NCBI GenBank assembly: GCA_949128115.1
Contig: OX421965.1
Location: 29,631,681 to 29,695,680, forward strand
From: Anaspis maculata
Lineage: Eukaryota; Arthropoda; Insecta; Coleoptera; Scraptiidae
Length of the DNA: 64,000 nucleotides
Direction of reading: 5' to 3'
Made by a program: the position numbers and the translations under genes. Positions 30,107 to 53,759 of this stretch are shown here, in pieces. The notes beneath the pieces are model-generated. The model did not search any database, was not told where the DNA came from, and saw only the letters and a program-made list of their open reading frames with translations. Every line of letters starts with the position of its first letter. Position 1 is the stretch's first letter.

Positions 30107-30113
30107 TATAAAT

Positions 30114-30131
30114 TGGTCCTTCGTAGCCGGA
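30114..30131 (+). promoter_or_regulatory. Primer-binding site
   Basis: TGGTCCTTCGTAGCCGGA begins 7 bp after the 5' LTR. It would pair with a tRNA 3' end reading TCCGGCTACGAAGGACCA, which is one base from the arthropod tRNA-Tyr 3' end as I remember it. The tRNA identity is therefore tentative. Confidence 0.75.
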
Positions 30132-30355
30132 TACAGGCTAAGCATGGTACAGTCAGGAATTTAATTCACCTCACTATTGAAACTTTAAAGTCACGGGTCA
30201 AACCCACGTGACACTTGTGCGTTGGTCCAGCGTGTTGATCAATTCGTTTTTCGCCCGTCTCATTCGCACTTTTTCACCTGGGTTGGGTTCGCCATTCAGG
30301 TACGCCAACCTAAGGGTCAGTTGCTTTGTTTTCATTTTTCTTTGTGTCGTACACA

Positions 30356-33300
30356 ATGGACGCAACTTTATCGTCCATCGCGATAGCTATTGCGCGCCTT
30401 GAGCCCCTTCTGGAACAAGGCGTCACAGCTACCACCGAGCCAAGCCTCCAACCGGCATTTTTAGCCACGTTTGACATTGCGGCGGAAATTTACAACGGTT
30501 TCAAGAGCACGGTCAACACTGCCCCTCTCCCCAGTGCCTCCGAGGAGCAGAAGGCTACATTTCTTGAACGTACACTCCGGGCAGACAGCTTGTATGGCAA
30601 ACTTGCTGCGGTAAAAGCCTCGTTTGCGAATTCAGAGCCGACTTCCTCGCTCTCTCGCCAAGCCTCGCAAACTTGGTTCGAGACAGGCCGGAGCAATGTC
30701 CGATTGCCAAAAATCGCGTTGCCGTTGTTCGACGGAAAGTTAAAATCATGGCCACCATACTATGATCTATTCACGGCGTTAATACACAGAAACCAGTCTC
30801 TCTCAGATATTGAACGGTTTCAGTATCTGATCTCGTCTTTATCTGGTGAACCTCTCTCAATGGTTAAACACCTGCCATTGACGGGAGATAATTACATAAT
30901 TGCGTTCGACTCGTTGGTTGAGAGATACCAGAACGACCGCGTGCTAGTCACTTTTTACTGGCAGTCGATGATGAACGCCTCCTCCGTCACATCTGACTCC
31001 GCGCAAGCGCTTCGCCATCTTGTGAACACGTTCAACGAAAATTTAGTGGCGCTCGAGCAGTATCCGCATATCGACCTGTGGGATTTCACCCTGTCGAGCA
31101 TGCTGCTCCAGAAACTCGATGAGTCGACGCGAAAACGTTTCGAGGTGCAGTCAGCTGGCACCCCCTTCCCCAAATACGAAGACGTCAAGTCTTTCGTGCT
31201 CGACCAATGCAAGGCTTTCGAGGCAACTGCCTTAAATTCTAAAACGCAATCGAACTCCCGCTCCACACGGGCAAACACCGTTACCGTGAAGCCCGAGGTC
31301 AGCCGCAAGTCGTGGGCCTCACATACGTTGGTGTCTCAGACTTCATCTGCCCCAGCGACGTCGCATGAGTCAGCATGTTCTCATTGTGGGGCGAGAAGTC
31401 ATAGAGTCACCGCGTGCAAGACTTTTCTGTCCATGTCCCCAAATGACAGATATTTGGCGGTCAAACAGAAAAGGCTCTGTCTCAACTGCTTGAGCACCAA
31501 TCACGGCGCTCCAAAATGTCCATCGTCGTATTCGTGTCGGCAGTGCCACGCAAGGCATCACACCTTGCTGCACTTCCCCAAGCCACATAGAACTGCAGGT
31601 CATGAGTCACCCAGTTCTTTATCGAATCCAGTTGAATTACCGCAAATCGTTTCCCCTGGTCTTCCAGAAAATGTCGCGAATTCGGTGACGAATCTCGCCT
31701 CAAGCCTCAAGGCAGCTCATGTTTTGTTGGCCACGGCAATCGTTCACGTTCGTGACCGGTGGGGAGGCTACCAAAGCCTCCGTGCGCTCATAGACCCTGC
31801 CAGTCAGGCATCGTTTATTTTGGACTCCTGCGTGCGCAAATTGGGTCTATCCCCATCAAATCACAATGTGCCCGTTTTTGGCTTGGGTCTCACCCCCGCC
31901 AATTCGACGTGTGGCACAGTCACTTGCCAGGTCAAGGCTGATGATGAGTCTCTCCCAATCCCTGAATTGGAGTTAATTGTCCTGCGCAGGATTTGTGGTA
32001 ACCTGCCAGACACCGCTTTGAACCCGGATCAATTCCACTTGAACTTATCGAATCTGGCGGATCCCACATGGTTCAAGCCAGGCCCCATTCAAGTGTTGTT
32101 GGGCGCCGACGTTTATCCGTCAGTCGTGAAAGAGGGAATCGTCTCGTCAGGTCCGTCACAGCCTGTTGCCATAAACACCATTTTTGGCTGGGCTCTTCTC
32201 GGTCCCTTTCAAACCCCGTCAAAACCTCTGCATTCCTTTTTGGTCTGCACTCCAACTGGAATCGACGAGTCTCTGCACAAATTTTGGGAAGTAGAGGAAA
32301 TCTCGTCACCATCGTCCAAAACACGTTTGTCCCCAGATGATGGACGTGCAGAAATTTGTTTCCGGGACTCTGTCTACCGTTGTCCGTCAGGTCGTTTTGG
32401 GGTTTCGCTTCCCTTCAAAAGGGAGTCCCCCACCTTTGAACATTGCAGGTCTATGGCTGACCGCCGTTGGTTAGCTATCGAACGTCGCCTGGTCCGTCAG
32501 GACACACTCCGTGATCTGTACATAGCATTCATGCGCGACTACCTCGACCTAGGTCACATGACCTTGCTGGACGCAGAACCTCCAGATTCTGAGGCGTATT
32601 ACATCCCTCATCATCCGATCGTCAAGATCGAAGACGACAAGCCGAAAATTCGCGTCGTTTTTGATGCTTCGGCGCAAGCGCCGAATCATTTATCTCTCAA
32701 CGAGACGCTTCTCGTCGGTCCTAAGTTACAACAGGACATAGCAGCTTTGCTACTGCAGTTTCGGTGTGAGCCGATCGTTTTTACTTGTGACATCCGTCAG
32801 ATGTATCGGCAGATACTTATCTCGCCCGAACATCGCAAGTATCAACTCATTCGCTTTCGTTTCTCCCCTGATCGACCCATTGAAACGTACCAATTGAACA
32901 CCATTACATATGGTGTTTCTTCGGCACCGTTTCTAGCGGTTCGCACGTTGCTTCACTTGGCAGAACAAAGCGCCTCGAAGTTTCCATTGGCTTCGCAGGC
33001 AATTCGCCGTAATTTGTATGTAGACGATCTACTTTGCGGTGCGAACTCCGTGGAATCAGCACGGGAATTACAAACGCAGCTAATCAACCTGCTCCAATCG
33101 GGTTGCTTTGAATTGCGCAAGTGGGCAAGCAATCACCCTGATGTGCTGCAAGACATACCACTTGATCACGTTCGAACTCAGCCGTCCACTTTCAGTGACG
33201 TTGCTGACAATACTGTAAAAATTCTTGGCCTCCAGTGGCAAGCGGCAACAGACACCTTTTCATTCACGGTTCATCCAAATGAACTACCGTGCACAAAACG

Positions 33301-35554
33301 GTCCATCTTGTCGGAGGTGGCTCGGATTTACGATCCGCTCGGCTTTCTGTGCCTTGTTGCATTTTTCGCCAAACATTTAATCCAACGGTTATGGAAACTT
33401 GGCCTTGATTGGGACGACACCCCTCCAGACATCGTATGTCAGCAGTGGTTGCGTTTTCAATCCGAGCTATCGCAACTTTCGCGGTTGCAAATTCCACGGC
33501 ATACTTTTCCTTCGCCTGCAGACAGGTGCCAGTTGCACGCCTTTTGCGACGCATCTGAATCTGGGTACGCGAGCGTGTTGTACGTTCGTTACCTTCGAAA
33601 TGGTGTTCCCACCATTCGTCTCCTAACCGCCAAATCAAAGGTGGCTCCAGTCAAATTGCTGACCGTACCCCGTCTCGAATTGTGTGCAGCGGTCCTACTT
33701 TCCAATCTCGTTGCCTTCACCGTTGCAGCGCTCGCAGGAACCGTACAGTTCGATGCCATATTTGCGTGGACCGATTCTACGGTTGTTCTCAGCTGGCTGC
33801 GTTCCTCTTCGCACCGCTGGAAAACATTTGTTGCTCACCGTGTTGAGCATATTCAACAGCGTGTCCCGCCTCAGTGTTGGAGACATGTCTCAACATCGGA
33901 CAATCCCGCCGACCCAGCTTCGCGCGGATTGTTTCCCGAAGACATGCTTTCGTGCTCCCTCTGGTGGTCTGGCCCACCTTTTCTGTCATCAGCGGATGAC
34001 ACATGGCCGGATGACAAATTCTCCGTGTCCTCCCCAGACATTGCGTCTGAAGAGCGAAAGCTCGCTTTGGTCGTGCGTGTGCCGCAGCCGCCGCCGATTG
34101 ACATCGACGACCTCTTTTTGCGCATATCCTCCTTACGGAAGATTCAGGGCGCTGTCGCCTATTTCTATCGGTTCTGCAAATGCAAGTCCGATGAGAAGTT
34201 CACAGGACCTCTCTCGGATACAGAACTCCATTTTGCCTTGTTGTACATTGTCAAACATGTACAGCAGAAGGTATTTGCCGTCGAAATCGCGTCGTTACGC
34301 AACGGCAAACCCTGTTCAAGACCCTTTCGAAAACTTTCACCCTTTCTCGATCGTGACGATGTTCTCCGCGTCGGCGGACGTTTGAAGCATTGTCATGAGT
34401 TGCCATTTGCAACCAGACACCCTGCTCTTCTTCCATCTCGTCACGTCTTGACAGGACTCGTCATTCGACAAGTTCATTCCCGACATTGCCACCCGGGACT
34501 CAACAATACCTGCTATCTCCTGCAGCAAAATTTTTGGATATTGTCCACGCGACGCGCGGTACGGCACTATCTTGCATCGTGTTACCGGTGCTTCCGGACT
34601 AAGCCGCAAACTTTTTCTCCCACCATGGGCGACCTCCCCTCGGCGCGAATTTCTCAGCTAAAACCTTTTAGCTGCGTCGGGCTCGACTATGGTGGCCCTT
34701 TTCCAATCCTCATGTCACGCGCTCGCGGTGTCAGAACTACGAAGGCGTACATCTGTCTTTTCGTGTGCTTCGCCACCAAGGCATTGCACGTCGAGGTTGC
34801 CTCCGATCTCTCAACAGATGCTTTCCTCGCTGCCTTGCGCAGATTCATTGCCCGGCGCGGTCGTTGCTCTACCATCTATAGCGACAATGGCACAAACTTT
34901 GTCGGAGCTCATAGGCAATTGACGATGTCAATGCAACTCGCCGCGGAATCCGAAGCCATCACTTGGCGCTTCATTCCTCCCTCCAGTCCCCACTTTGGCG
35001 GGCTGTGGGAAAGCGGCATAAAAGCTGTCAAAACTCATCTATCTCGCGTGATAGGTGATCAAATACTCACCTTTGAAGAGCTGACCACGTTGGTCACCCA
35101 AGTTGAAGCGTTGCTCAACTCACGGCCACTTTCGGAGCTGAGCTCGGATCCAAATGATCTGTGCCCATTGACGCCTGGTCATTTTTTGACGCTCGAGCCG
35201 TTAACGGCCCCACCTGACCCAGATTTGTCCCACCTCAAGATCAGCAGGTTGTCGCGATGGCAGTTGGTCCAATCCATGCAACAGCGTTTCTGGGCGCGTT
35301 GGCGCGACGAATATCTACACACGCTGTACCAACGCGGCAAGTGGCACAAGTCACGTCACCTTGAATCCGCAGATGTGGGGTCTTTAGTCCTCATCAAGGA
35401 CGAAAGCGCTCCCCCTCTGAAGTGGAGGTTAGGCAGAATTTCAAAACTCTTCCCCGGCAAAGATGGCATTTGTCGTGTCGCAGATGTCCGTACTCAACGC
35501 GACGTTCTGCGACGCCCAATGGTCAAACTTTGTCCCCTCCCTTCAGGACAGTGA
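30356..35554 (+). CDS. BEL/Pao gag-pol polyprotein (1,732 aa)
   Basis: Encodes structural protein, protease, reverse transcriptase/RNase H and integrase for retrotransposition. I start at the ATG at 30356 (MDATLSS); the frame is open upstream without an ATG. Residues about 110-290 are the BEL gag region. Zinc knuckles: C341/C344/H349/C354, C375/C378/H383/C388 and C394/C397/H402/H406. The aspartic protease has D480 in IDPASQASF, where the usual S/T-G after D is P-A. Reverse transcriptase: D812 in FTCDIRQMY and YVDD at 888-891. RNase H acidic residues: D1065, E1108, D1140, D1186. The integrase has an H/C zinc site, then D1444, D1510 and E1552. All catalytic residues except the protease variant are canonical, and no stop or frameshift is seen, so the copy may be functional. 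Confidence 0.97.
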   Translation: MDATLSSIAIAIARLEPLLEQGVTATTEPSLQPAFLATFDIAAEIYNGFKSTVNTAPLPSASEEQKATFLERTLRADSLYGKLAAVKASFANSEPTSSLSRQASQTWFETGRSNVRLPKIALPLFDGKLKSWPPYYDLFTALIHRNQSLSDIERFQYLISSLSGEPLSMVKHLPLTGDNYIIAFDSLVERYQNDRVLVTFYWQSMMNASSVTSDSAQALRHLVNTFNENLVALEQYPHIDLWDFTLSSMLLQKLDESTRKRFEVQSAGTPFPKYEDVKSFVLDQCKAFEATALNSKTQSNSRSTRANTVTVKPEVSRKSWASHTLVSQTSSAPATSHESACSHCGARSHRVTACKTFLSMSPNDRYLAVKQKRLCLNCLSTNHGAPKCPSSYSCRQCHARHHTLLHFPKPHRTAGHESPSSLSNPVELPQIVSPGLPENVANSVTNLASSLKAAHVLLATAIVHVRDRWGGYQSLRALIDPASQASFILDSCVRKLGLSPSNHNVPVFGLGLTPANSTCGTVTCQVKADDESLPIPELELIVLRRICGNLPDTALNPDQFHLNLSNLADPTWFKPGPIQVLLGADVYPSVVKEGIVSSGPSQPVAINTIFGWALLGPFQTPSKPLHSFLVCTPTGIDESLHKFWEVEEISSPSSKTRLSPDDGRAEICFRDSVYRCPSGRFGVSLPFKRESPTFEHCRSMADRRWLAIERRLVRQDTLRDLYIAFMRDYLDLGHMTLLDAEPPDSEAYYIPHHPIVKIEDDKPKIRVVFDASAQAPNHLSLNETLLVGPKLQQDIAALLLQFRCEPIVFTCDIRQMYRQILISPEHRKYQLIRFRFSPDRPIETYQLNTITYGVSSAPFLAVRTLLHLAEQSASKFPLASQAIRRNLYVDDLLCGANSVESARELQTQLINLLQSGCFELRKWASNHPDVLQDIPLDHVRTQPSTFSDVADNTVKILGLQWQAATDTFSFTVHPNELPCTKRSILSEVARIYDPLGFLCLVAFFAKHLIQRLWKLGLDWDDTPPDIVCQQWLRFQSELSQLSRLQIPRHTFPSPADRCQLHAFCDASESGYASVLYVRYLRNGVPTIRLLTAKSKVAPVKLLTVPRLELCAAVLLSNLVAFTVAALAGTVQFDAIFAWTDSTVVLSWLRSSSHRWKTFVAHRVEHIQQRVPPQCWRHVSTSDNPADPASRGLFPEDMLSCSLWWSGPPFLSSADDTWPDDKFSVSSPDIASEERKLALVVRVPQPPPIDIDDLFLRISSLRKIQGAVAYFYRFCKCKSDEKFTGPLSDTELHFALLYIVKHVQQKVFAVEIASLRNGKPCSRPFRKLSPFLDRDDVLRVGGRLKHCHELPFATRHPALLPSRHVLTGLVIRQVHSRHCHPGLNNTCYLLQQNFWILSTRRAVRHYLASCYRCFRTKPQTFSPTMGDLPSARISQLKPFSCVGLDYGGPFPILMSRARGVRTTKAYICLFVCFATKALHVEVASDLSTDAFLAALRRFIARRGRCSTIYSDNGTNFVGAHRQLTMSMQLAAESEAITWRFIPPSSPHFGGLWESGIKAVKTHLSRVIGDQILTFEELTTLVTQVEALLNSRPLSELSSDPNDLCPLTPGHFLTLEPLTAPPDPDLSHLKISRLSRWQLVQSMQQRFWARWRDEYLHTLYQRGKWHKSRHLESADVGSLVLIKDESAPPLKWRLGRISKLFPGKDGICRVADVRTQRDVLRRPMVKLCPLPSGQ

Positions 35555-35659
35555 GCATTCTGTGTTTTCACTTCCGTCATTGTTTTCACTATGCTCTTTC
35601 TTTTTGTATCATGTTTGATTTCATTAATTTTTGAACTTTGAAAATACCCCGAGTGGTAT

Positions 35660-35673
35660 TTTGGTGGGGAGTA
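35660..35673 (+). promoter_or_regulatory. Polypurine tract
   Basis: The purine-rich stretch TTTGGTGGGGAGTA directly precedes the 3' LTR, where plus-strand priming is expected. Confidence 0.7.
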
Positions 35674-36632
35674 TGTCTCGGCCCCGTTCATTGAAAACTG
35701 CATTCGTGTGCATTGAGGGTATGCAACCCAAAATATCCCTGTGTCGTCCAAGTCCTCACCCCTCACCCCCTGTTCGGTGTGCCTGGCACTTGGCTGTCAG
35801 GCGCAAGCGTAAACGAGCTCCAGCACTTTCTTCGGCCGTCTTCGGCATTCTTTCCGCTCGTGCCTTTGCCGCTTCGTTCGAAGCGGCGTCGATCTCCGTA
35901 CGTCGAGCGGGAAGCCACGCCGTCTTTTTTTTGGTCATCGTTCTCGCGGCCATCTTGTCGTGCCATCGGCGTACATTCGTACTCGACCAGAAGCCCATCC
36001 AAGGCCCATCGCGTCCGATAGTGACTCCTGGAGGATCTCTGCAGCATCTCCAAGTCCAGAAAGCGGCAGTTTTCACCGCTTTCACCGGGGAGCGGCTTGG
36101 ACCAGCCAGCCGCACACAAAGCTCCAGTTTCGGACGGGATCGAGTCGTTCGTCCGCCATTTTGGTGACGAACACGGGCACTCGTGCATTTCAAAAGGAAA
36201 TCCACCACCAGAACGGCCATCCACCACGACGCCGCCTTCGGACTCCGCCAGGACGACGCCGCCACCGAATAAGATCCCGTAAGTTCCATATTTTCCATTG
36301 TTTTTACCATTTACCGTTTATTCCCGTTTGCCGGGGTGTATACCTTCAGTGCAGTTCGTCTCGTTTTCAGGACGCCACTCGGCGCCCGCGAATCTGCCCC
36401 CGATCAGAACCACTCGGATTTTTCATTTCATTTAATTCACATTGTTTTTTTTTTATTGTTTTGTAATTCTGTCTGTTTGTGTTTTTTTTTTCTTTTGTTT
36501 TGCATTAAAGTTTTTGATGGTTGTTGTGAATTTTATTTCTGACTGTCGCTTGCTGCTTTCCTAATCCAAGAGTTATTGTTTTAATGCAGCCTTCATCGGA
36601 AGGCTGCCGTCTTTATGTGTACCGCGCTAACA
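35674..36632 (+). repeat. 3' LTR of the BEL/Pao element (959 bp)
   Basis: Matches 29149-30106 throughout, with one extra T in the run near 36482-36491. It ends CTAACA, followed by the duplication ATAAG. Confidence 0.97.
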
Positions 36633-36962
36633 ATAAGTGTGTCACTTACTTGTGTTAAAATTTTCCAGCATTCTTTGAAGCCTTCTCATTTCATTTTAGG
36701 TAGTCTTTGACTCCAACGATTTTCCTTATTCTTGAATTCGGCATTGCACTTTTGTCGATTCAAGCGCGCCCGAAAAACATCCGCACCTTCCGAGCGTAAG
36801 AAACATAATGACGAGTGAGTGGGCTATGATATAAGAGGTGGCATGAGGAGGGCATGGTTATGAAACAGTTATTTCATATTTCTTGAAACATTACGCCAAA
36901 ACGAGCGCCGAAACATAAACTACATGTGTGATCTTGAGGACGGGGCCATCGAAGTATAATAA

Positions 36963-37390: not shown

Positions 37391-37396
37391 CTTGTT

Positions 37397-38020
37397 AGTA
37401 GATAGAGAAGAGGGCGACCGAATCAAGTCTCATTACTTGTAATTACAGAGGATGTAATTACGACGTCGGTAATTAGACCGGTCCTACCGCTCTACAGTAC
37501 ACTCTTTAGGGTACGACGCCGGGTGCTATAGAGACGTGATATGGGTGGGGATCCTGAAACCGAGCTCATTAATTATTGAGGTAATTACTAGAGAGGTAAT
37601 AACACCGCGAGAGTATGTGCATACCAGCTTTACCGGTTCGAGCTTGGACCCGCGGTTTACCTCGACCGTCGCTTTAGTCCTCCTCCTCTTCATGCCTACC
37701 GCTGCAGGTGCAAAGCAGAACAGTGGCAGGTGCATGTGCCATCGTGTCTTCTCAGTCGAACCTCCTCCGACACCGTTTGCGCTATATTGGTAAGAGCGAG
37801 ATGAAGCGCTGCCATCCTCTTAACACAGCTCGACCAAGCGCACAGCGGTAGGTCTTCTCCTCTCGCGCTCGGTTCTACCTGCTCCCCATGGCACAAAACC
37901 GCCGGATCGTGTTTTATGGCTGCTTCCAATCGAACATGCGAAGGAGTCGCAAAGGTAGGTCCTTCGCAAGGTCCTGATGGTCGGAGGTCCTTGCACATAT
38001 TGGGGGCATGAGCGCTGCAT

Positions 38021-38099
<79 letters not shown>

Positions 38100-38945
38100 A
38101 TTTCGCTCCCACATCTCTGTCTATCATCCTATGCAGTGGTGGCCCGGCCAAACGCAGAGGTTTGAGAGAGAACCGTGTGCTGTGCTCTTACTTACCTACA
38201 GAGAGGCGCACAACGTTTTAAAAAAATTAGATGAACTACCTAATTTTTCTGAGATGAGGTACCTAATTTTTCTATTTGCTCGCGCTTCGGTGTACGGTTT
38301 CATTTATCGACGCTCACAACATGGGAACGAAGGGATGCACGACGCTTTAAAAAAAAAAACACTGAGAGGAGATACCTAATTTTTCTATATGACCGCTACG
38401 TCGCAATGTTTTAATCATAGCAAGGAGGGAGAATATGAAATAGATAGCTCTTACTTACCTACAGAGAGGCGCACAACGTTTTAAAAAAATTAGATGAGGT
38501 ACCTAATTTTTCTGAGATGAGGTACCTAATTTTTCTATTTGCTCGCTACGTCGGAATACATTATCCATAACAAATCGAGATGCTCTGGACAGATGAGCCG
38601 ATACAAAACTAGCTGTTGTACTAAACATCATGATGTTTTTGATGGTAGGGGGTAATATATACCTCGGTACATCATCTAGCTGTGTTTTAACCCGCGATTT
38701 CGAGATAGCTAAATTAGTTTTGCATGACTAGGTACGGCCATTTCTACCTTCTTCACAATTCAAAAATTCAAATATTCAAATCCAGTATTGGTATGATATC
38801 CCCTGCCAGAGGGTGGAGGGTAGGGAGCGGCGGGTGGCAACCGGAATTGTTCGATAAGGTGAACGAAACTGGTGGTTAGATTTTGCTCGCTTATGGTTTG
38901 TAAATCACCGAATTAAGGTCCTTTTTCTCGCAAGAGGACTGTGGG
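37397..38945 (+). repeat. Left terminal inverted repeat (about 1.55 kb)
   Basis: Pairs with about 46215-47874 reversed. Shared landmarks are the AGTAGATAG end, the AATTACGACGTCGGTAATTA block, a GA microsatellite, a block containing GAGAGGCGCACAACGTTTT, and the inner end near CGAATTAAGGTCCTTTTTCTC. Repeat differences include a longer GA tract here and an extra copy of the GAGAGGCGC block near 38461-38540. Frames within it mirror those in the right repeat and are not supported as genes. Confidence 0.85.
38018..38097. repeat. GA microsatellite in the left TIR
   Basis: About 80 bp of uninterrupted GA dinucleotides. The matching CT tract in the right repeat (47202-47248) is about 47 bp. Confidence 0.95.
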
Positions 38946-39540
38946 AGTTGGTCAGAACCCACCTGCCTCCGAGCTATGCAGAGCGGTCGCATATACATGC
39001 CCGATTTATTAAGGGTCTTATGAAATGCAGTCTATCGCCGCAGGTGTTTTCGTCGAGTTTCTAAGGGTATCTGTGATGCAAGACCAGCCCTCCCTAACAT
39101 CGTTTCCATGCTCCGGCATTCCTGCATATGAATCTCCGAATTAGGAAATTTTTTATTGCTAGAGGACCGCGGGACTTAATTAAAACCTACCTGACCGTTC
39201 GATGTGCCAGAGGCGGTCAGGACGACGGAGAAAAAAAAAACCATTCTCCGACGTTAGCTGCCAGGCCACGAAGGAAATAATTTTTATCTTCGCGGGGGCC
39301 TGAAGGGTTGGACTCAGTAACACGGCGACCAATCGGGTTTAAACACAAAACCCTTTCTCTCGATATGCATATGGGAAAAACATCGTCCAGCAGGCGTTCG
39401 TGGTCTAGCAGGCGATCGGGCCTCAACCAATCGGGTAATTTTTCCCAAATTTCATGCATAGGAGGGATGGAGCGAGTCGTCTGAAGGGTTAACCCGGAAA
39501 TTTCATATAGCTAGTTTTCTACCGTACTCGCGTCAGTAAA
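38946..39540. other. Element interior before the first gene
   Basis: A diverged duplication: the stretch near 38905-39000 (CACCGAATTAAGGTCC...AGAGCGGTCGCAT) recurs near 39130-39220 (CTCCGAATTAGGAAATT...AGAGGCGGTCAGG). An 80-codon minus-strand frame (39459-39217) has no support. A TCAGT initiator-like motif lies at 39532-39536, upstream of the first gene. Confidence 0.45.
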
Positions 39541-39605
39541 GTTCGACTCTGAAATCCTCCCGGCTAAATTTTTTGCTAGTGAGTATCTTGCATTTTAAAA
39601 AAATA

Positions 39606-39950
39606 ATGGAATTAGTAAACCAGCTGAATAATATTGCGCGGGGTGCTGCTTATAAGCCTCTCATTAAGGCTAAAGAGCTAACAGTCGGAGAGCCCAATAA
39701 GATTATTGATATAAAAAGTGTGACGACACGGTACGGTGAAAGGCGCGTGTGTCATCTTGAAAACGTTCAATTCTTCTTGCCCACGCGGTTTAACACGTTT
39801 TTCACACCGCAAAAAATTGCGGAAACGATCGAGCTGGATATGTCGATCATATTCAGAGGGATGAAAGGCTCTGGAGCCATGGAGACGCCAGTCTTCGAAT
39901 TTGCATCAGCGCAAGGTGAGATAGCGATCTCGCGAAAGTATGAGACCTAG
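39606..39950 (+). CDS. 114-aa orphan, possibly nucleic-acid binding
   Basis: The first ATG in frame is at 39606 (MELVNQLNNIARG), in A-rich context. The central segment, DIKSVTTRYGERRV followed by NVQFFLPTRFNTFF, has a pattern of 'I.xV.TrYG..V' strand, turn, then 'FLP.R' that I recall from small arthropod and virus-associated orphans thought to adopt an OB-like fold. This is inference. A strong donor, GCAAG|GTGAGA, lies at 39915/39916 with an acceptor, TTATTCCAG, at 39997. Splicing would end the protein right after SAQV, giving 104 residues. The function is unknown; single-strand DNA binding is a testable guess given the element type. Confidence 0.6.
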   Translation: MELVNQLNNIARGAAYKPLIKAKELTVGEPNKIIDIKSVTTRYGERRVCHLENVQFFLPTRFNTFFTPQKIAETIELDMSIIFRGMKGSGAMETPVFEFASAQGEIAISRKYET

Positions 39951-39997
39951 GTCATATAATTTCATTTTTTTTTATTTATTTATTTATTTTATTCCAG
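39916..39997 (+). other. Candidate 82-bp intron
   Basis: GTGAGATAG donor and a T-rich tract ending TTATTCCAG. Using it changes only the last residues of the 114-aa orphan, and joins it to the non-coding ATC-rich leader of the next gene. Confidence 0.4.
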
Positions 39998-40027
39998 TAT
40001 AGAGAAGGTTGATCAACATTACCATCA

Positions 40028-40032
40028 CCAGT

Positions 40033-40063
<31 letters not shown>

Positions 40064-40080
40064 ATCATCATCGTCATCAA
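40028..40080. repeat. ATC microsatellite
   Basis: A run of ATC trinucleotides, with a related weaker run near 40150-40170. Two diverged copies of a segment containing CCGATCATAGATG follow at 40085 and 40168. Confidence 0.85.
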
Positions 40081-40382
40081 CCCCCCGATCATAGATGTTA
40101 GCGTTCGCAATCGTCGTCTCATCTCCTTTCAACAACGTGATCATCGTCAAACATCATCATCATCAACCCGATCATAGATGCTAACGTTCGCATTAATCAT
40201 CTCAACTCTTTAATCATCGAACTAGGATCCCGAGAACTAGAAGAGTTCGCACCCTCCATACCTAAAGCAACCGCCCTATACTAAAGCAGACGTAAAAACA
40301 TCACCCGCGAGCGAGCGTAATCATCGTCAGGTCGATCCCTACAAGTCAAGTACTGTGGAGCTTCAATACCATCTCTGCAAAC

Positions 40383-40449
40383 GTAAGCTATTTTCACCTC
40401 AAAATAATTTCAAATCATCCGTTAACTTGGCTTCTCTCTCTCTCATTAG
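40383..40449 (+). other. Candidate 67-bp intron upstream of the second orphan
   Basis: The donor AAAC|GTAAGCT at 40383 and the pyrimidine-rich acceptor CTCTCTCTCATTAG at 40449 lie one base before the ATG at 40451. The size and signals are typical of insect introns. Confidence 0.5.
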
Positions 40450-40450
40450 C

Positions 40451-40762
40451 ATGTGGCAACTTCGACGTGATCCCCCAACAGACGTTAAAGAGAGTGTGAA
40501 GAGCATGCAGCGGTACCTAGACGAAGAAGAGCTGGAGGCCGACAGGGCGCTGAACCGGGTATATTGTCCGAACAAGTTGGCAAGATACGAAAACCTTTCG
40601 AACACGTCTCGCGCGGGTGGAGAAATCTGTGAACGTTTCATACAATCACAGATTTCTCTGGATCATTTTTGCGAACTAATTCAAGATATAGGGCTGGGGC
40701 CACGATTAAAGCGGCTTAGGCCGTTTATCACCGAAGAGCTGCTGCAGAAATATTGCAACTAG
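40451..40762 (+). CDS. 103-aa orphan protein
   Basis: ATG at 40451 starts MWQLRRDPPTDVKESVKSMQ. The protein is charged and predicted helical (RYLDEEELEADRALNRV, then SLDHFCELIQDIGLGPRLKR). It has no signal peptide, membrane segment or recognisable domain. The start is chosen over an upstream GTG-opened frame because the preceding bases look like an intron. An AATAAA at 40963-40968 fits as poly-A signal. The function is unknown. Confidence 0.55.
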   Translation: MWQLRRDPPTDVKESVKSMQRYLDEEELEADRALNRVYCPNKLARYENLSNTSRAGGEICERFIQSQISLDHFCELIQDIGLGPRLKRLRPFITEELLQKYCN

Positions 40763-40769
40763 TGTCCCC

Positions 40770-41647
40770 GGCGCCGGATATTTCTACAGCATTATTGTAC
40801 CCGAACCTGTTAAATTAGATAAGTTTATAATGTAACATTTTATTTTTCAATAGTCAATTTCGTCCATATTTAGGTTAGCCTAATTAGAGCATAGCAGTGT
40901 TGATGATTTTAATTTTAATGATAATGTAATGATGGTAATGATGTAAACGTATTAAAGCTTTAAATAAAAATGAGAAAAAAAAAATTCTTGCATTTTCAAT
41001 AAAAAAGAAAAAACCTTTCAACATATGAAACGTAAAAGCAGGGATATGAGATTTGAGAAACAGTCTCAAAATAAGATATAAAAAAAAAATCGAAAAAAAA
41101 AAAAAACCCCGCTGGATGTGGGAATATAGGAAAAAAATATTTAACCAATGGCAGGAGAGCCATCCCCCCACAACCTCCGCCGCGGATGACGAAAGCTCAG
41201 AAAAAACAATGGCGTGCCCAGGAACGTATCTGGCAACAGCAACCACCATCCAGCGTGCGTCATGAGCAGGAATAAATATAGGTTAGCAGAGCATTTATTC
41301 TAATTAGATTTGTATTTTTTTTTTTTTTGAGGCTAATAAAATCGTATTAAGAACCTATCGCAGCACTGCTTTCATCCAGGGCTTCCTAGCTAATCATAGT
41401 AATCTCTCTCTGCGACGAGTTTTTGCGATCCATGATCGTATGATATAGAAAACTCTATATCTTAGAAAAAATCTTTATCCGGAAAAATAGAGTTCCGGGT
41501 TATGTGGTGATCGGCCGTCTACGATGCAGCGCTGCTAAGAGAAATATTCATATCGGTATGTGGTATAAACAAAACAAACACAAGGTTGGTTCCATAATAT
41601 TTTTATTACTAAAAAGTTCTGGAAATTGTCGGAATAGTGAATATATA
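40770..41647. other. AT-rich intergenic part of the element
   Basis: Contains A-rich tracts near 40975-41105 and poly-A signals. Frames on either strand are low-complexity lysine or phenylalanine runs and are not supported. Nothing recognisable precedes the iteron array. Confidence 0.5.
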
Positions 41648-42281
41648 TTATGGCATGACGCGGTGGTGGTTAAAGCATGACGTCACTGTTGACAGCTCAT
41701 GCCGACTTATGGCATGACGCGGTGGTGGTTAAAGCATGACGTCACTGTTGACAGCTCATGCCGACTTATGGTATGACGCGGTGGTGGTTAAAGCATGACG
41801 TCGCTGTTGACAGCTCATGCCGACTTATGGCATGACGCGCTGGTGGTTAAAGCATGACGTCACTGTTGACAGCTCATGCCGCCTTATGGCATGACGCGCT
41901 GGTGGTTAAGGCATGACGCGCTGGTGGTTAAAGCATGACGTCACTGTTGACAGCTCATGCCGACTTATGGCATGACGCGGTGGTGGTTAAAGCATGACGT
42001 CACTGTTGACAGCTCATGCCGACTTATGGCATGACGCGCTGGTGGTTAAAGCATGACGTCACTGTTGACAGCTCATGCCGCCTTATGGCATGACGCGCTG
42101 GTGGTTAAGGCATGACGCGCTGGTGGTTAAAGCATGACGTCACTGTTGACAGCTCATGACGACTTATGGCATGACGCGCTGGTGGTTAAAGCATGACGTC
42201 ACTGTTGACAGCTCATGCCGACTTATGGCATGACGTGCTGATGGTTGAAGCATGACGCCACTGCTGACAACTCATGCCGAC
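41648..42281 (+). repeat. Iteron-like array: ten 59/81-bp units with TGACGTCA palindromes
   Basis: Ten tandem units starting TTATGGCATGACGCG and ending AGCTCATGCCGAC. Eight units are 59 bp; units 5 (41884-41964) and 8 (42083-42163) are 81 bp because of the same internal 22-bp duplication. Eight of ten contain the perfect CRE/ATF palindrome TGACGTCA; unit 3 has TGACGTCG and unit 10 TGACGCCA. Each also has GGCATGAC near its start and the inverted TCATGCC near its end, so half-sites occur in both orientations. Unit-to-unit identity is very high except for unit 10, implying recent amplification. It lies about 450 bp upstream of the helix-turn-helix gene. Confidence 0.93.
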
Positions 42282-42630
42282 CCGATGCTTAAATGATTCT
42301 ATTAATCTATCCATCTATAATATACCTCAATAGATCATCCAGCTGAACCTTGCCTAATTCCGCATGGTCGTCGGTTAAAACATCACGAGCTGATTATGGC
42401 ATGACGAGCTGTTGGGTAAGGCATGACGTCATTGCTAGCAGCCCATGCCGACCCGACGCTTAAAACGTGATGATCTAGGTGATATGGCATGACGACTGAT
42501 GGTTAATGCACAGCGCTTTGACTCTCAGACCATGCCGTCTCTACGGATAAAACATGTCGACTAGTGCTGCTGGCACATGTCAAATTATCTAGCAGAGCAT
42601 GCCGACTTGTTATGGTTGAAACATTGCACC
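42282..42630 (+). repeat. Degenerate continuation of the iteron array
   Basis: At least three diverged units: one near 42395-42460 with GCATGACGTCATTG and CCCATGCCGAC, one near 42484-42540 with ATGGCATGACGAC and ACCATGCCG, and a last one near 42595-42630. This looks like the older edge of the array. Confidence 0.7.
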
Positions 42631-42644
42631 ATAGCGGTTATAGC

Positions 42645-42700
42645 TATAAAACCTCGAACACCTCCGATTAATAGCCAGTCGCGAGCGATCTTTGTTCAGT
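42645..42700 (+). promoter_or_regulatory. Core promoter of the helix-turn-helix gene
   Basis: TATAAA at 42645-42650 with an initiator-like CCAGTC about 30 bp downstream, and a consensus arthropod initiator TCAGT at 42696-42700. The ATG follows at 42729. The array lies directly upstream, so it could act as enhancer or operator. Confidence 0.6.
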
Positions 42701-42728
42701 GAATGAAGCTGCTGATCCTGAAAGAAAC

Positions 42729-44096
42729 ATGAGAAATCAAATTAGTTCTGAAACAATTCAAAAGGCTGTAGCCGAAGTCCGACGTGGTGGCTCGCGCAGA
42801 GCGATCGCTAGGTCATTATGTATTCCCGCATCTACACTGGGGCGGCTGTTGCGACGGGTTAAGAAAGTGAACGGCGTGTATGTCTATAATCCAAATATCG
42901 GGAATAGGAGAATCTTCTCAAAAGATGAGGAGTTGATGCTCGCTGACTATATCAAAGCAGCATCGAAAATGCCACATGGCGTGACACGCAAGCACGTGTG
43001 TAAATTCGCTCTAGAACAGGCTAGGCTGCTAAACAAGAGCTATCCACAACGCTGGGATAAACAACAAGCAGCATCTTTTGATTGGTGCAGAGGATTCATG
43101 AAACGGCATCCAGACATTTCACTTAGAGGCTGCAGGGAACGCAATTTGCAGCAAGTGGTAGATCCTGACAAAGCGGCTGAGACCGTCTCTTGTAAAAATC
43201 TCGAGACTTTTGACGTCAGCTCGAATAATTCGACTATGGTTATGAAGTATCCAACCAAAGCTTCCTCGAATACGTCGCTACAGCTCCTAGCATCATCAGG
43301 GCCTCAACCGGGACCTTCGCCAGTGCTGTCATCATCAGCCAGCATGATATCGGAACCATCAGATGTGTATGATGACGAGGATGCAGATGGTTATGAAAGA
43401 GCAAATGAGGACTCCACTACCAAGTTCTCCGGTAATAAAGAAGATTTTCACAGCTCTCAGGTTGGGACGTCCAAAGCCTATAATTATGTTAGCGTGTTCA
43501 GACCACGTTTTTCATCGGGAGATCAAGTCAAATCACGTCTCGCTTCTAAATATGCGAACACTGCTAAATCCTCGGAGGACTCTGTCTTGAAAGCTGATAG
43601 TGACGATGTGTTATACGATAGCTCTGGTGATTTCAACGCTGCCAAAGAACTTTCTTCGAGTTCGCTTATCAATCCGCGTACGGGGTATAAAAATGCATAT
43701 GAGCGCCGTTTTTCATCTGAGGACGAGGATCAAAACATGTGGTGTAAGAGCTTCAGTAATACAAAAGAAGTTTCTTCAAGGGCGCGACTTACACCGAGTG
43801 GCGGATATCAGAATGCGTACAAGCACTGTTTTTCATCTAAGGATGAAGATAAGAGGTGTTCGGGGAGCGACTTCGAGAACATTGATGATCGTGCGGGGAA
43901 TGGCTCCTTTATGAATGATATGGGACGACGGCGATTTGCGAAGAGGTCCCTAGTAGGTGAATATTTCACTGACATAAATGGCGTTATAGATCGATTAGTA
44001 ACATTGAGTGCACAGCGGAACACCGGGGACGTCGGAGTCGTCCGAGAAATAGTATCGCTGGAAAAAATTCTCCGAGATGCTGAAGTAATATACTAA
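42729..44096 (+). CDS. Psq/CENP-B-type helix-turn-helix protein (455 aa), no transposase domain
   Basis: Starts at the ATG at 42729 (MRNQISSETIQKAVAEVRRG); the open frame extends upstream without an ATG. Residues about 4-45 are a Pipsqueak-type helix-turn-helix (SRRAIARSLCIPASTLGRLL). Residues about 57-135 resemble the second DNA-binding half of CENP-B/pogo proteins (FSKDEELMLADYIKAA, then FDWCRGFMKRHPDISLR). These domains normally precede a DDE domain in pogo transposases; here the rest is a serine- and acid-rich region instead. It holds two clear copies and one weaker copy of a motif like GYKNAYERRFSSEDED (about residues 320-390) and a short helical C-terminus (about 420-455). AATAAA at 44247 can end the mRNA. 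A nuclear DNA-binding role is well supported; binding to the adjacent array is inference. Confidence 0.8.
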   Translation: MRNQISSETIQKAVAEVRRGGSRRAIARSLCIPASTLGRLLRRVKKVNGVYVYNPNIGNRRIFSKDEELMLADYIKAASKMPHGVTRKHVCKFALEQARLLNKSYPQRWDKQQAASFDWCRGFMKRHPDISLRGCRERNLQQVVDPDKAAETVSCKNLETFDVSSNNSTMVMKYPTKASSNTSLQLLASSGPQPGPSPVLSSSASMISEPSDVYDDEDADGYERANEDSTTKFSGNKEDFHSSQVGTSKAYNYVSVFRPRFSSGDQVKSRLASKYANTAKSSEDSVLKADSDDVLYDSSGDFNAAKELSSSSLINPRTGYKNAYERRFSSEDEDQNMWCKSFSNTKEVSSRARLTPSGGYQNAYKHCFSSKDEDKRCSGSDFENIDDRAGNGSFMNDMGRRRFAKRSLVGEYFTDINGVIDRLVTLSAQRNTGDVGVVREIVSLEKILRDAEVIY

Positions 44097-44279
44097 CTTT
44101 TTTTTTTTGGATACCCTCATTAGCGTAAAAATGTCCATATTTTATTCACGATCGAATGGGACATTGATCGGAAATTTGTATCAACTAATACCTAATACCT
44201 ACCTACCTACCTAGCCATTTAAAGATGTAGTGAATATTTCCGTGGAAATAAAGATATTGAACACTTTTGAATAGAGCAT

Positions 44280-46200
44280 ATTTCTTTCACTGTCATAATC
44301 ACCAATCCTATATGCCTGGTTGTGATGCCCATACTTGTCTCAATAGCGAATCATAAGGTGAGGGTTTGCGGAATGCCTGCCTCATGGACACATTCATATT
44401 TATCAAAAAAAAAAGAAAAGAAAAGAAAAAAGAATTCAGAGATGTCAAATAAATAGAGTGAGCTCGCGCGAAAGAATAGTCTCGACTGTAGAAACCCTCC
44501 AAAGCTCTTGTACTTTTTATCCCACCCGATTCAGTCCGGGCAGAGTCCAATTCCGGCTCTGTTAGAAGTCTATAATCTCTCATTCAATATATAAAAATGG
44601 TGCATTCCTTGATGCTAGAACATGGTATGCAAGGTGAGACATCCTTTTTGGCTCCCTTTTACTTCTCCTGAGCCACATCAATTCGGATGATAGCCTTACC
44701 CACTTCGAAGGAACGTCTACCGTATTTGGCGAGACAAATCAAAAATTTATATTTTTGCAATCACTGCGGGTACTAGCTACTGTAGCATCATGCATTTTTG
44801 CAGATTTTGGCCATGCAATGAGTTGCTAGAGACAAATTTCCCTGGCAACTCCCTGCACAAAAGAGGCGAAGCAGCACCTAATTCGAGCTGTATATCAAGT
44901 CAGGGAGATATTATAAATACAAATTTTTTATATGGTTTGCGGAAATCTCTGAGCTTTCGAGTAAACTAGATAATATTATCCTATCCAATTTTATTCAGAA
45001 AATCAGATAAAACATATAAAACATGTTTCACCCTCTAGCTTATCGTCAAAACCGATGAATTATTCTCGGAAATGCTTGCAAATACCTTCAAACATGTGAA
45101 TGAAAATTTCTATGCTCTTGCTAGTACGATAAAATCCATCGTGTTTAACACTTGGGGGATATGGAAGATGCCGGTTCTCCGGTCATTTGGTTGGATTTTT
45201 TCCAACATTCCCATCTCAGATGGGGGGTTTTTTCGAGTCGAACTTTGCGGTCGAGGATGGATTACGAGAGCAGATGTTGTTTGAACCGTCAACCTCGTCG
45301 ATCACGCTTATCATCAGAGAGCCTGCGAAGTAAGCTATCTGGAGCGTAGTGTTCCGACCATCGTATTATTTAAAATTATCGTAGCGAGAATAATCCAGCT
45401 TATTATACATGATTTTCTCTTAAATCAATGCTTTCATACGTATATCATATTCTTTTCTTTCCGTATGTGGTTATTTTGAAGCGAACTTGGGTATTTAGGC
45501 AAATACTTATCACTCTATACTCTACTATTTTCACGCAAGCATCCTGGGTTGAAAAAAATTATTCAGTGCTGATATTTTCCAACTCATGGCACTATGGCAT
45601 GCAAAAGAAAGAAGTAGCTTTCAATTAAGTTTCTACATAAATATTTACTATATAATTAACTCCATTAATAGGTCTGAAAGAGCGTGCGCCCGAAGCTTCT
45701 CCTATAATACCTGCATATGGCCAGGACTATGTAGGTACCTACATCAAAACAGGTGGCATGGCTGGGATTTCTTCGCGAGCTCCGAGATTCTTCTATGGTC
45801 CTCATTATGCTCATTCACAGCTGGGTTTATAAAAAAAAGCGAGTGCACTCGTAGTTTTCATTCAAGTGGCACTGCTTCCCCATGCTTTAGAAAGTGGTAT
45901 AGAAGCCGTCTCGTTGTGTTGCTATATGGTTTTTCCAAAGTGCTCGTAGAATTATCTCCATACACCACCATCATATCACCATTTTCCTCGAAACTATGAT
46001 GGCACATAATTCTATAATATACCCCGAGCTTTGAGAGCATGAATTTTTTAAAGAACAGGTACCTACCGGTTTTGTATGATAATAGCACTTTATACCTGCA
46101 GACCCTCGGTCGGAAACCTCACCTTATGCATCTAACAGGCCTCGAATATATCCATATCGATGTGGGATGATAGACAGGGATGGAGCCGATATAGCGCGCT
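44280..46200. other. Right interior of the element, no gene recognised
   Basis: About 1.9 kb with short frames only on both strands. No polymerase, integrase or capsid-like frame was found, nor any clear repeat. If the element once held Polinton core genes, none survive recognisably here. Confidence 0.5.
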
Positions 46201-46214
46201 TTGTCACATGCGGC

Positions 46215-47199
46215 GCTTAGGTCTTCTCGCGAGAAAAAGCCCTTAATTCGGCAATTTACAAAACCATAAACGAGCAATATCTATCTAACCAGCAGTTTCG
46301 TTCACCTTATCGAACAATCCCGGTTGCCACCCGCCGCTCCCTACCCTCCACCCTCTGGCAGGGGATATCATACCAATACTGGATTTGAATATTTGAATTT
46401 TTGAATTGTGAAGAAGGTAGAAATGGCCGTACCTAGTCATGCGAAACTAATTTAGCTATCTCGAAATCACGGGTTAAAACACATCTAGATGATGTACCGA
46501 GGTATCTATTACCCCCCGCCATCAAAAAAAAGTAAAAATTTTTGAATTGTGAAGAAGGTAGAAATGGCCGTACCTAGTCATGCGAAACTAATTTAGCTAA
46601 CTCGAAATCACGGGTTAAAACATATCTAGATGATGTACCGAGGTATCTATTACACCCTACCATCAAAAACATCATGATGTTTAGTACAACAGTTGACTAT
46701 GTATCGGTTCATCTATCCAGTGCATGTCGAGCTGTTTTGGTTAATACATTCCGACGTAGCGAGCATATAGAAAAATTAGATATCTCAGAAAAATTAGGTA
46801 CCTCATCTAATTTTTTTAAAACGTTGTGCGCCTCTCTGTAGGTAAGTAAGAGCTATCTATTTCATATTCTCCCTCCTTGCTATGATTAAAACATTGCGAC
46901 GTAGCGGTCATATAGAAAAATTAGGTATCTCCTCTCAGTGTTTTTTTTTTAAAGCGTCGTGCATCCCTTCGTTCCCATGTTGTGAGCGTCGATAAATGAA
47001 ACCGTACACCGAAGCGCGAGCAAATAGAAAAATTAGGTACCTCATCTCAGAAAAATTAGGTAGCTCATCTAATTTTTTTAAAACGTTGTGCGCCTCTCTG
47101 TAGGTAAGTAAGAGCACAGCACACGGTTCTCTCTCAAACCTCTGCGTTTGGCCGGGCCACCACTGCATAGGATGATAGACAGAGATGTGGGAGCGAAAT

Positions 47200-47250
<51 letters not shown>

Positions 47251-47874
47251 ATGCAGCGCTCATGCCCCCAATATGTGCAAGGACCTCCGACCATCAGGAC
47301 CTTGCGAAGGACCTACCTTTGCGACTCCTTCGCATGTTCGATTGGAAGCAGCCATAAAACACGATCCGGCGGTTTTGTGCCATGCGGAGCAGGTAGAACC
47401 GAGCGCGAGAGGAGAAGACCTACCGCTGTGCGCTTGGTCGAGCTGTGTTAAGAGGATGGCAGCGCTTCATCTCGCTCTTACCAATATAGCGCAAACGGTG
47501 TCGGAGGAGGTTCGACTGAGAAGACACGATGGCACATGCACCTGCCACTGTTCTGCTTTGCACCTGCAGCGGTAGGCATGAAGAGGAGGAGGACTAAAGC
47601 GACGGTCGAGGTAAACCGCGGGTCCAAGCTCGAACCGGTAGAGCTGGTATGCAGATACTCTCGCGGTGTTATTACCTCTCTAGTAATTACCTCAATAATT
47701 AATGAGCTCGGTTTCAGGATCCTCACCCATATCACGTCTCTATAGCACCCGGCGTCGTACCCTAAAGAGTGTACTGTAGAGCGGTAGGACCGGTCTAATT
47801 ACCGACGTCGTAATTACATCCTCTGTAATTACAAGTAATGAGACTTGATTCGGTCGCCCTCTTCTCTATCTACT
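46215..47874 (-). repeat. Right terminal inverted repeat (about 1.66 kb)
   Basis: Reverse complement of 37397-38945. It carries an extra tandem duplication of about 147 bp near 46395-46680 (TTTTGAATTGTGAAGAAGGT...GATGTACCGAGGTATC, twice) that the left copy lacks, and a shorter CT tract (47202-47248). Such differences show that the two repeats have begun to drift. Confidence 0.85.
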
Positions 47875-47880
47875 CTTGTT

Positions 47881-52380: not shown

Positions 52381-53025
52381 GTAACGGGGGTTCTTTGGGT
52401 TCGCCCGTTATTTATGATGAGCGCTGATGCTCGGAGCGCTGATGCTCAGATTTCACTCAGGTAGTCAAGGGTTGTCAACTCTCCTTGCATAGGTTCAAGT
52501 TCCTCTCAGCTTAGATTGCTCGGGCGCCACCCTACTGACCGCAGGGAAAGTAAACTCGCATGTAGTTTAACAAGTATATTGAACACACAATTAATTTACG
52601 TACAAAAGGGTTTCACACAAAATGACAGTGATTGTTACACAAATATTTACAACAATTGTTACACAAATAATTACAGCCAAGAGATGGGAATAACAAAAAC
52701 CTATCCCGCAAAGGATCCTACCACAAAGCACGTGACGCGAGGGGAGGGTGTGACGTAGTACAGAGCGCAGTTCGGAGGGGAGTTTGATAACAATGCGGTG
52801 CGACGTGTGCAGCGTGCACCTGACTACCTTTCTCTCAAATTTACCCCCTCATTCACACATTCATTCGCACATACTGTGCTGGTAAGATCCGGCCAGGACA
52901 CTACCGGAGCTTTGTGTCCACGACCAGCCGATCTCCCAGCAACAATCGTAACTACTCACGCAATAACCCGGCCTGGACACGCCGGATCCACGACCTGCCG
53001 GTTACTCGGAGTAGCTCTGCTCATA
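52381..53025. other. LTR-like or repeat-associated sequence, unresolved
   Basis: Begins TGTAACGGGGGTTCTTTGGG near 52381, reminiscent of an LTR start, but no matching 3' end or second copy is in the window. The interior has a 12-bp duplication (GAGCGCTGATGCTC) and diverged precursors of the 77-bp repeat that follows (for example CCGGCCTGGACACGCCGG). Confidence 0.3.
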
Positions 53026-53492
53026 CAGTCATCCACGACTAGACTTGCTCCAGGACACGGGGTATCCACGAACGCCAGTAGCCAGGACGGACCTCATTCA
53101 CACAGTCATCCACGACTAGACTTGCTCCAGGACACGGGGTATCCACGAACGCCAGTAGCCAGGACAGACCCCATTCACACTCCAACCCCAAATTCACTCA
53201 GTCTATCCACGACTAGACTTGCTCCAGGACACTGAGTATCCACGAACGCCAGTAGCCAGGACAGACCTCTCACACAGTCTATCCACGACTAGACTTGCTC
53301 CATGACACGGGGTATCCACGAACGCCAGTAGCCAGGACAGACCTCATTCACACAGTCACCCACGACTAGACTTGCTCCAGGACACGGAGTATCCACAAAC
53401 GCCAGTAGCCAGGACAGACCTCATTCACACAGCCATCCACGACTAGACTTGCTCCAGGACACGGAGTATCCACGAACGCCAGTAGCCAGCAC
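53026..53492. repeat. Minisatellite, about six copies of a 77-bp unit
   Basis: Units start TCATCCACGACTAGACTTGC, contain CAGGACACGGGGTATCC and ACGAACGCCAGTAGCCAGGA, and end CCTCATTCACACAG. One unit has an extra 25-30-bp insertion near 53165-53195. Near-identity points to recent expansion. A frame passing through it is repeat-driven. Confidence 0.9.
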
Positions 53493-53759
53493 ATTCATAC
53501 TCCCCGGTCAGGTGCACACCAGCGAATCTTTAAGAAAAGACTCAGTGAACACCGTGGACATGGAGTTGGTACCTAGGTACAACGTTTGGAGATGTTAATT
53601 GTCATCTGGCTTCCCCACGACCTTTTTAGAGCGGTTATGCCCAATGAAGGACATGGTTGTTCTGCTTTGGAAGTGTTCGTCCAGTTGATTGCAACAACAC
53701 TCCAACGAGTCAGTAGAATGACTGGTACCTATTACCGGAATCGGCCGAAGCCATGGAAC

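What the first reader, a model, noticed from the sequence alone, without database searches (positions are those of the whole stretch)
37397..47874. Polinton-like element with hallmark ends but a completely non-canonical gene set
Seen: AGTAG...CTACT termini, a perfect 6-bp duplication CTTGTT, and about 1.6 kb inverted repeats enclosing three plus-strand genes. Known: Maverick/Polinton elements have AG/CT ends, 6-bp duplications and long inverted repeats, and normally encode polymerase B, retroviral-type integrase, ATPase, protease and capsid proteins. None is recognisable here. Inference: this is either a non-autonomous Polinton that kept or acquired its own regulatory genes, or a separate lineage of long-TIR element.
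Basis: partly seen in the sequence, partly recalled or inferred. Interest (0 to 1): 0.88.

Follow-up and report, generated by a model that had tools for sequence, protein, structure and literature searches.

The report
Split-genome Polinton, one recombinant piece
The window holds one member of a virus-like jumping-element family whose genes are divided among several separately inserted pieces with the same ends, which would be a new genome layout for this group if the pieces really depend on each other.

Summary
In detail: element 37397-47874, AGTAG...CTACT ends, a 6-bp CTTGTT duplication, inverted repeats of about 1.5-1.65 kb. The host genome (758 Mb, unnamed) gave 25 further elements with these ends. 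All 15 elements with both ends read have a perfect 6-bp duplication, each of different sequence.
Different gene cargoes sit behind the same ends. A (9 elements): integrase, capsid, packaging ATPase. C (3): DNA polymerase B, ORF1, ORF2. B (12): ORF3. W (2, one being the window): a C-left/B-right recombinant with ORF1-ORF3.
None of the 26 was seen to carry polymerase with capsid. In the genome-wide lists, 21 polymerase loci and 48 capsid loci of this lineage never lie within 20 kb of each other (closest 746 kb). In related lineages of the same genome, 14 of 15 polymerase loci have a capsid gene 1.4-5.7 kb away.
So the window copy is non-autonomous. The best reading is a Polinton family split into complementing segments, a layout my paper searches did not find. 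Complementation is inferred, not shown; the chief rival is a set of defective derivatives of a lost one-piece element.

The parts
37391..37396 (.). left target-site duplication CTTGTT
47875..47880 (.). right target-site duplication CTTGTT
37397..38939 (+). left terminal inverted repeat, AGTAG end
   Evidence: shared with types A, B and C
46221..47874 (-). right terminal inverted repeat, CTACT end; holds a 141-bp duplication (46396-46669)
37439..37588 (.). three subterminal GTAATTAC sites per arm (37439, 37454, 37581; mirrored at 47683, 47810, 47825), candidate binding sites
   Evidence: 7 in the window against 0.87 expected; 6 of the 7 lie in the repeats
39606..39950 (+). ORF1, 114 aa, unknown family; also on the three polymerase-bearing type C elements read
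   Evidence: mostly synonymous change
40451..40762 (+). ORF2, 103 aa, helical by a low-confidence single-sequence model; also on the three type C elements read
41647..41649 (.). recombination junction: C-like sequence to the left, B-like to the right
   Evidence: L044 is collinear across it
41648..42281 (+). 59-bp tandem array upstream of ORF3, rich in GCATGAC (21 in the array, 3 in the degenerate stretch after it), candidate operator array
42729..44096 (+). ORF3, 455 aa: N-terminal helix-turn-helix plus Tc5/CENP-B-like DNA-binding part (Pfam scores below curated cut-offs), no DDE domain found; C-terminal part probably related to the 342-aa protein of type A
   Evidence: TATAAA at 42645, AATAAA at 44247
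45797..46528 (-). stretch matching the left arm of type A and B elements at and just inside their repeat (98% to L035 and L036)

Best explanation
The element is one of at least four kinds of element of a single Polinton (Maverick) family that has become multipartite. Shown: type A carries the integrase, double-jelly-roll capsid, PLA2-domain protein and packaging ATPase. Type C carries the polymerase B with ORF1 and ORF2. Type B carries ORF3, which has a DNA-binding-type N-terminus. Type W, the window, joins the left part of C to the right part of B at 41647-41649. They share about 1.5 kb of terminal repeat and, where both ends were read, 6-bp target duplications; the 16 elements of known length are 9.6-12.9 kb; none of the 26 was seen to hold polymerase and capsid together. 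Inferred: the type C polymerase replicates every piece from the shared AGTAG end by protein priming; the type A integrase, which would read the same ends, inserts each piece with a 6-bp stagger; the type A capsid and ATPase may package each piece separately. W is inserted in trans and contributes ORF1 to ORF3. ORF3 probably binds DNA, perhaps its own 59-bp upstream array, as a regulator of the family.
For: The first 600 bp of the repeat found 40 scored hits (of 362 candidates) that resolve into 26 elements: A 9, B 12, C 3, W 2 by tblastn with 15 proteins. Polymerase with capsid or whole integrase: 0 of 26. Genome-wide lists: 21 PolB loci (90% identity or more) and 48 MCP loci (97% or more) of this lineage, 0 pairs within 20 kb, closest 746 kb. 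Control in the same lists: 14 of 15 PolB loci at 53-61% identity have an MCP 1.4-5.7 kb away. Type A: rve integrase E 1.5e-14, DJR capsid E 2.8e-64, PLA2 E 2.5e-11, Pox_A32-like ATPase E 1e-4, just below the curated cut-off. Type C: DNA polymerase profile phrog_1907 E 4.1e-17 and motifs DVTSLY, KLQINANYG, YMDTDS. Perfect 6-bp TSD in 15 of 15 with both ends read: 4 A, 8 B, 2 C, 1 W. Identical ~550-bp ends between elements of different type: 11 pairs among 26 elements (A-B, B-C, B-W, A-W; none A-C). Integrase and capsid aligned over full length in 9 of 9 A; ORF3 in full in 12 of 12 B, six of these across my own cut between two stretches, where in two a single residue falls on the cut. The end AGTAGA matches the published vertebrate Maverick end motif (AGT)2 in 5 of 6 positions (PMC8097293 passages).
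Against: Complementation, packaging and virions are not shown. The genome lists score only the best candidates (46 of 342 for PolB, 102 of 265 for MCP), so a rare one-piece element could be missed, and another individual could carry one. Only 3 of the 21 PolB loci and 9 of the 48 MCP loci were read in elements with these ends; that the rest have the same ends is inferred from identity. Of the 21 PolB loci 14 are open over the whole query, 4 bear stops and 3 are partial. PolB loci are fewer than MCP loci (21 against 48). B carries a broken-off integrase C-terminus (residues 208-307), which fits a derivative of A as well as a true segment. One type A element (L023) has its 237-aa gene in two pieces. 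End haplotypes are not free of type: within-type distances are smaller than between-type (permutation p 0.015). ORF3 copies are too alike to show selection (4 synonymous-only and 4 amino-acid-changing codons in 8 copies), and ORF2 shows none. AGTAGA is not an exact published motif. The genome searches for integrase, ORF1 and ORF3 did not complete.
Confidence: 0.7

Rival explanations
1. Types A, B, C and W are all defective derivatives of a one-piece Polinton that is lost, or is missing from this assembly; they amplified while it was active and do not depend on each other now.
For: Related lineages in the same genome look one-piece by gene distance. B holds a C-terminal integrase remnant next to P219, as an internal deletion of A would leave. 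W is a plain recombinant. End haplotypes keep some structure by type.
Against: No listed pair of 21 PolB and 48 MCP loci is linked. 38 of the MCP loci are shown as 100% identical to the query and the 47 full-length ones have no stops; 14 of 21 PolB loci are open over the whole query, which is unexpected for inert leftovers. In the elements read, A and C each keep what the other lacks.
Confidence: 0.22
2. A and C form the real two-part element, while B and W are satellites that use its replication, insertion and perhaps packaging, in the manner of virophages or DNA satellites.
For: B and W lack both PolB and a whole integrase, yet B is the commonest type among the 26 elements, a sample picked by likeness to the window's end. 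ORF3 matches no core Polinton gene in Pfam.
Against: ORF1 and ORF2 of W come from the PolB element and the ORF3 C-terminus looks related to a type A protein, so the cargo looks like family genes. ORF3 is covered in full in 12 of 12 B and 2 of 2 W.
Confidence: 0.35
3. A separate long-TIR DNA transposon lineage such as IS3EU, GingerRoot or Dada.
For: IS3EU usually and GingerRoot also make 6-bp duplications (PMC10045372 passages).
Against: IS3EU ends are TA..TA, GingerRoot's mostly so and occasionally TG..CA; reading the boundary as TA..TA destroys the duplication (TGTTAG against CTCTTG). No RNA gene target (Dada's habit, recalled): Rfam at gathering scores and ARAGORN find none in the window. 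Elements with the same ends carry Polinton-type integrase, polymerase and capsid.
Confidence: 0.01

Closest known systems
Polintons/Mavericks and insect adintoviruses (for example Drosophila-associated adintoviruses)
   Same: 6-bp TSD, AG-type ends, long inverted repeats; rve integrase, PolB, DJR capsid and packaging ATPase exist in the family.
   Different: There the core genes sit in one element: Drosophila-associated adintovirus 1 (14.6 kb, PolB, integrase and capsid) and the near-complete adintovirus 2 (13.3 kb, almost identical gene set) (PMC8363768, passages); intact vertebrate Mavericks of 12.7-24.6 kb with repeats of 46-1447 bp (PMC8097293, passages). Here polymerase and capsid/integrase are on different elements, the 16 of known length being 9.6-12.9 kb, and the repeats are about 1.5 kb or longer.
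Drosophila Vesanto virus and bidnaviruses
   Same: Insect-associated DNA viruses with a PolB traced to Polintons (PMC11071308 passage) and a split genome, many of whose segments have similar terminal inverted repeats (PMC8363768, passages).
   Different: Reported as single-stranded DNA viruses with 3.3-5.8 kb segments; no insertion with 6-bp duplications is described in the passages seen. Here the pieces are about 10-13 kb and are integrated.
Non-autonomous Polintons (Repbase-style names, recalled)
   Same: Polinton ends and TSD without the core genes; describes the window copy taken alone.
   Different: The window copy keeps three open genes of the family, and no complete one-piece partner was found in the lists.

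Membership tests
Polinton/Maverick | 6-bp target-site duplication | tested here: met
   15 of 15 elements with both ends read
Polinton/Maverick | AG..CT or AGT-type end motif in terminal inverted repeats | tested here: met
   AGTAGA..TCTACT, 5 of 6 positions of (AGT)2, so a near match (vertebrate motifs from PMC8097293)
Polinton/Maverick | core genes (PolB, rve integrase, DJR capsid, ATPase) in the element itself | tested here: not met
   window copy: no Pfam match, no tblastn hit for those genes. Hence non-autonomous, not a complete Polinton
Polinton/Maverick | core genes in other elements with the same ends in the same genome | tested here: met
   type A and type C elements
Polinton/Maverick | core genes together in one autonomous element | tested here: not met
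   0 of 26 elements; closest own-lineage PolB-MCP pair in the capped genome lists 746 kb
multipartite virus or element | separate pieces with shared ends and complementary gene sets | tested here: met
multipartite virus or element | pieces replicate and move only when the others are present | not testable with these tools
   needs an experiment or co-segregation data
IS3EU/GingerRoot | TA..TA ends with 6-bp TSD | tested here: not met
Dada | insertion into RNA genes (recalled) | tested here: not met
   no RNA gene in the window by Rfam or ARAGORN

The most novel reading that the evidence does not exclude
An animal genome carries a multipartite Polinton: a virus-like integrating DNA element whose polymerase, capsid/integrase and regulator genes lie on separate 10-13 kb pieces with common ends that are replicated, inserted and perhaps packaged in trans and that recombine with each other. 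The window copy is such a recombinant piece that has itself spread to at least two loci.
Probability: 0.6. Interest if true: 0.93.

Novelty: new variant of a known kind. Interest (0 to 1): 0.86.

Why it matters
Polintons are held to be close to the origin of many eukaryotic DNA viruses (recalled) and the ones in the passages I saw are one-piece genomes. A lineage split into complementing integrated pieces, beside seemingly one-piece sister lineages in the same genome, would give a comparative case of how a DNA virus genome becomes segmented, a long-debated question. It would parallel the multi-segmented Vesanto/bidnavirus group, whose polymerase is traced to Polintons, and would change how non-autonomous Polintons are annotated: some may be segments, not junk.

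Tried and rejected
Looking for relatives outside the host genome led nowhere: protein database searches with ORF3 and ORF1, viral contigs, prokaryotic genome contigs, and the PDB by sequence (nothing or insignificant rows). ORF2 was not sent to the protein database. Single-sequence AlphaFold models of ORF1 (pLDDT 36) and ORF2 (pLDDT 61) gave no significant PDB fold match, so my impressions of an OB-like ORF1 and a SAM-like ORF2 stay unproven. Codon-usage scoring of ORF1 and ORF2 was inconclusive. IS3EU, GingerRoot, Dada and a separate transposon lineage were considered and rejected. Pfam's PolB model did not hit the type C polymerase; a PHROGs profile did.

The rows left out are six N-terminal pieces of PolB loci already counted and a second piece of the MCP locus C5:55766824. 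L031/32 printed a failed TSD because I had set its right end short of the element; it is not counted.

Full report
Observation. The element at 37397-47874 is real and bounded as described: AGTAG...CTACT ends, CTTGTT on both sides, long inverted repeats. The middle holds ORF1 (114 aa), ORF2 (103 aa) and ORF3 (455 aa), all on the plus strand. No Polinton core domain was detected in this copy.

The family. Once the host genome answered (757.8 Mb, 50 contigs; the window is C5:29631681-29695680), the first 600 bp of the repeat gave 40 scored hits out of 362 candidates. I followed all 40. They resolve into 26 elements, window included, which I read in halves or in stretches of at most 10 kb. They are a sample picked by likeness to the window's end, not the whole family. 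In all 15 elements with both ends read the duplication is 6 bp, perfect, and different each time.

Four cargoes behind the same ends. tblastn with 15 proteins sorts the 26 elements. Type A, 9 elements, 11.7-12.9 kb for the five of known length: rve integrase, double-jelly-roll capsid, a 237-aa protein (in two pieces in L023), a PLA2-domain protein, an A32-like ATPase, and proteins P164, P342, P117, P106 and P219 (Pfam). Type B, 12 elements, 9.6-10.6 kb for the eight of known length: ORF3, one or two P219 genes or parts of them, and in most a C-terminal integrase piece. Type C, 3 elements, 11.4-11.7 kb for the two of known length: ORF1, ORF2, a polymerase B (motifs) and a further 430-aa frame. 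Type W, 2 elements: ORF1, ORF2 and ORF3. Some genes of type A were not reached in the singly fetched elements (for example the ATPase in L035, L038 and L039), since up to about 3 kb at the far end of a singly fetched element was not read.

The window copy is a recombinant. Window 37397-41649 matches type C (92-98% by piece, with about 0.7-1 kb more in C at window 41168), 41647-45809 matches type B (95-98%), and 45797-47874 matches the A/B arm (97-98% to L035 and L036). The switch lies at 41647-41649, where the 59-bp array begins. L044, on contig C4, is collinear with the window across the switch (38287-45292, 96%), so this recombinant has itself spread.

No complete copy was found. I asked whether polymerase and capsid of this lineage are ever linked. 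The lists hold 21 PolB loci at 90% or more and 48 capsid loci at 97% or more. No pair lies within 20 kb and the closest is 746 kb apart. The same two searches contain their own control: among 15 PolB loci of related lineages (53-61% identity), 14 have a capsid gene 1.4-5.7 kb away and the fifteenth 15.4 kb away, so ordinary one-piece Polintons are seen where they exist (judged by distance; I did not read these loci). The lists hold only the best-scored candidates (46 of 342 and 102 of 265), so they are lower bounds. Only 3 of the 21 PolB and 9 of the 48 capsid loci were read in elements with these ends. Ten PolB loci at 47-48% have no listed capsid within 34 kb, which I cannot interpret because their capsids may be too divergent to be listed.

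Shared ends across types. Identical end sequences of about 550 bp occur in elements of different type (11 pairs among 26 elements: A-B, B-C, B-W, A-W, none A-C), and the tree of ends mixes types. There is still some structure by type (p 0.015). This is expected of pieces that share replication and insertion machinery and recombine, and also of recent derivatives of one ancestor.

Working model. Shown: same ends, same duplication length where tested, similar size, complementary gene sets, recombination between types. Inferred: the type C polymerase copies all types by protein priming from the shared end; the type A integrase inserts all of them; packaging by type A proteins is possible. ORF3 has an N-terminal DNA-binding part of transposase/CENP-B type (Pfam E 2.7e-4, just below the curated cut-off) and a C-terminal part that looks related to P342 of type A (50 bits against a shuffle maximum of 26.6; BLASTP E 2e-7 one way, 0.083 the other). 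Beside a 59-bp array rich in GCATGAC, it is most likely a regulator. ORF1 appears to be under purifying selection by a small count (10 synonymous-only against 3 amino-acid-changing codons, 5 copies); ORF2 and ORF3 counts do not decide.

Rivals. The strongest rival is that all types are defective leftovers of a lost one-piece Polinton. The many open, near-identical polymerase and capsid loci speak against pure leftovers, but only a census in other individuals can settle it. Whether B and W are true segments or satellites of an A plus C pair is open.

Novelty. The seven answered paper searches (PMC open-licence papers only) listed no title or abstract on a segmented or multipartite Polinton, and term look-ups in PMC11071308 and PMC12567637 found none. 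I saw listings and passages, not whole papers. The nearest print case seen is Vesanto virus, a multi-segmented bidna-like virus with similar terminal repeats across many segments (PMC8363768, passages).

Noticed in passing
29149-36636: BEL/Pao LTR retrotransposon with an open 1746-aa frame and 99.8% identical repeats, ending about 760 bp upstream of the element.
   Followed up: partly
host genome G000, PolB loci at 47-48% (for example C2:12206859, C2:5935111, C6:31848079): Ten PolB loci of another lineage have no listed capsid gene within 34 kb; possibly a second split lineage, or its capsid is too divergent to be listed.
   Followed up: no
host genome G000, MCP loci at 62-63% (C2:2734151, C4:62519535, C4:95090001, C4:4856252, C3:76825166, C3:77574380, C1:80065530, C5:46481737): Eight capsid loci of a related lineage have no PolB within 15 kb in the capped lists, judged by eye.
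   Followed up: no
L015, L019, L025, L028, L034, L036, L037, L041, L042, L045, L046: Eleven of the twelve type B elements show a C-terminal integrase piece (residues 208-307) beside P219, in four of them split in two; L017/18 showed none. Many have a second, whole or partial P219 in the opposite arm.
   Followed up: partly
L010:3191-4060: Type A carries a parvovirus-type phospholipase A2 domain (Pfam E 2.5e-11) with a weak adenovirus protein X match (E 0.025).
   Followed up: no
17840-20286 and 59240-61031: Two further inverted repeats with 0.75 kb arms (79-81% alike), probably other foldback-type elements.
   Followed up: no
53021-53493: 77-bp tandem repeat array.
   Followed up: no
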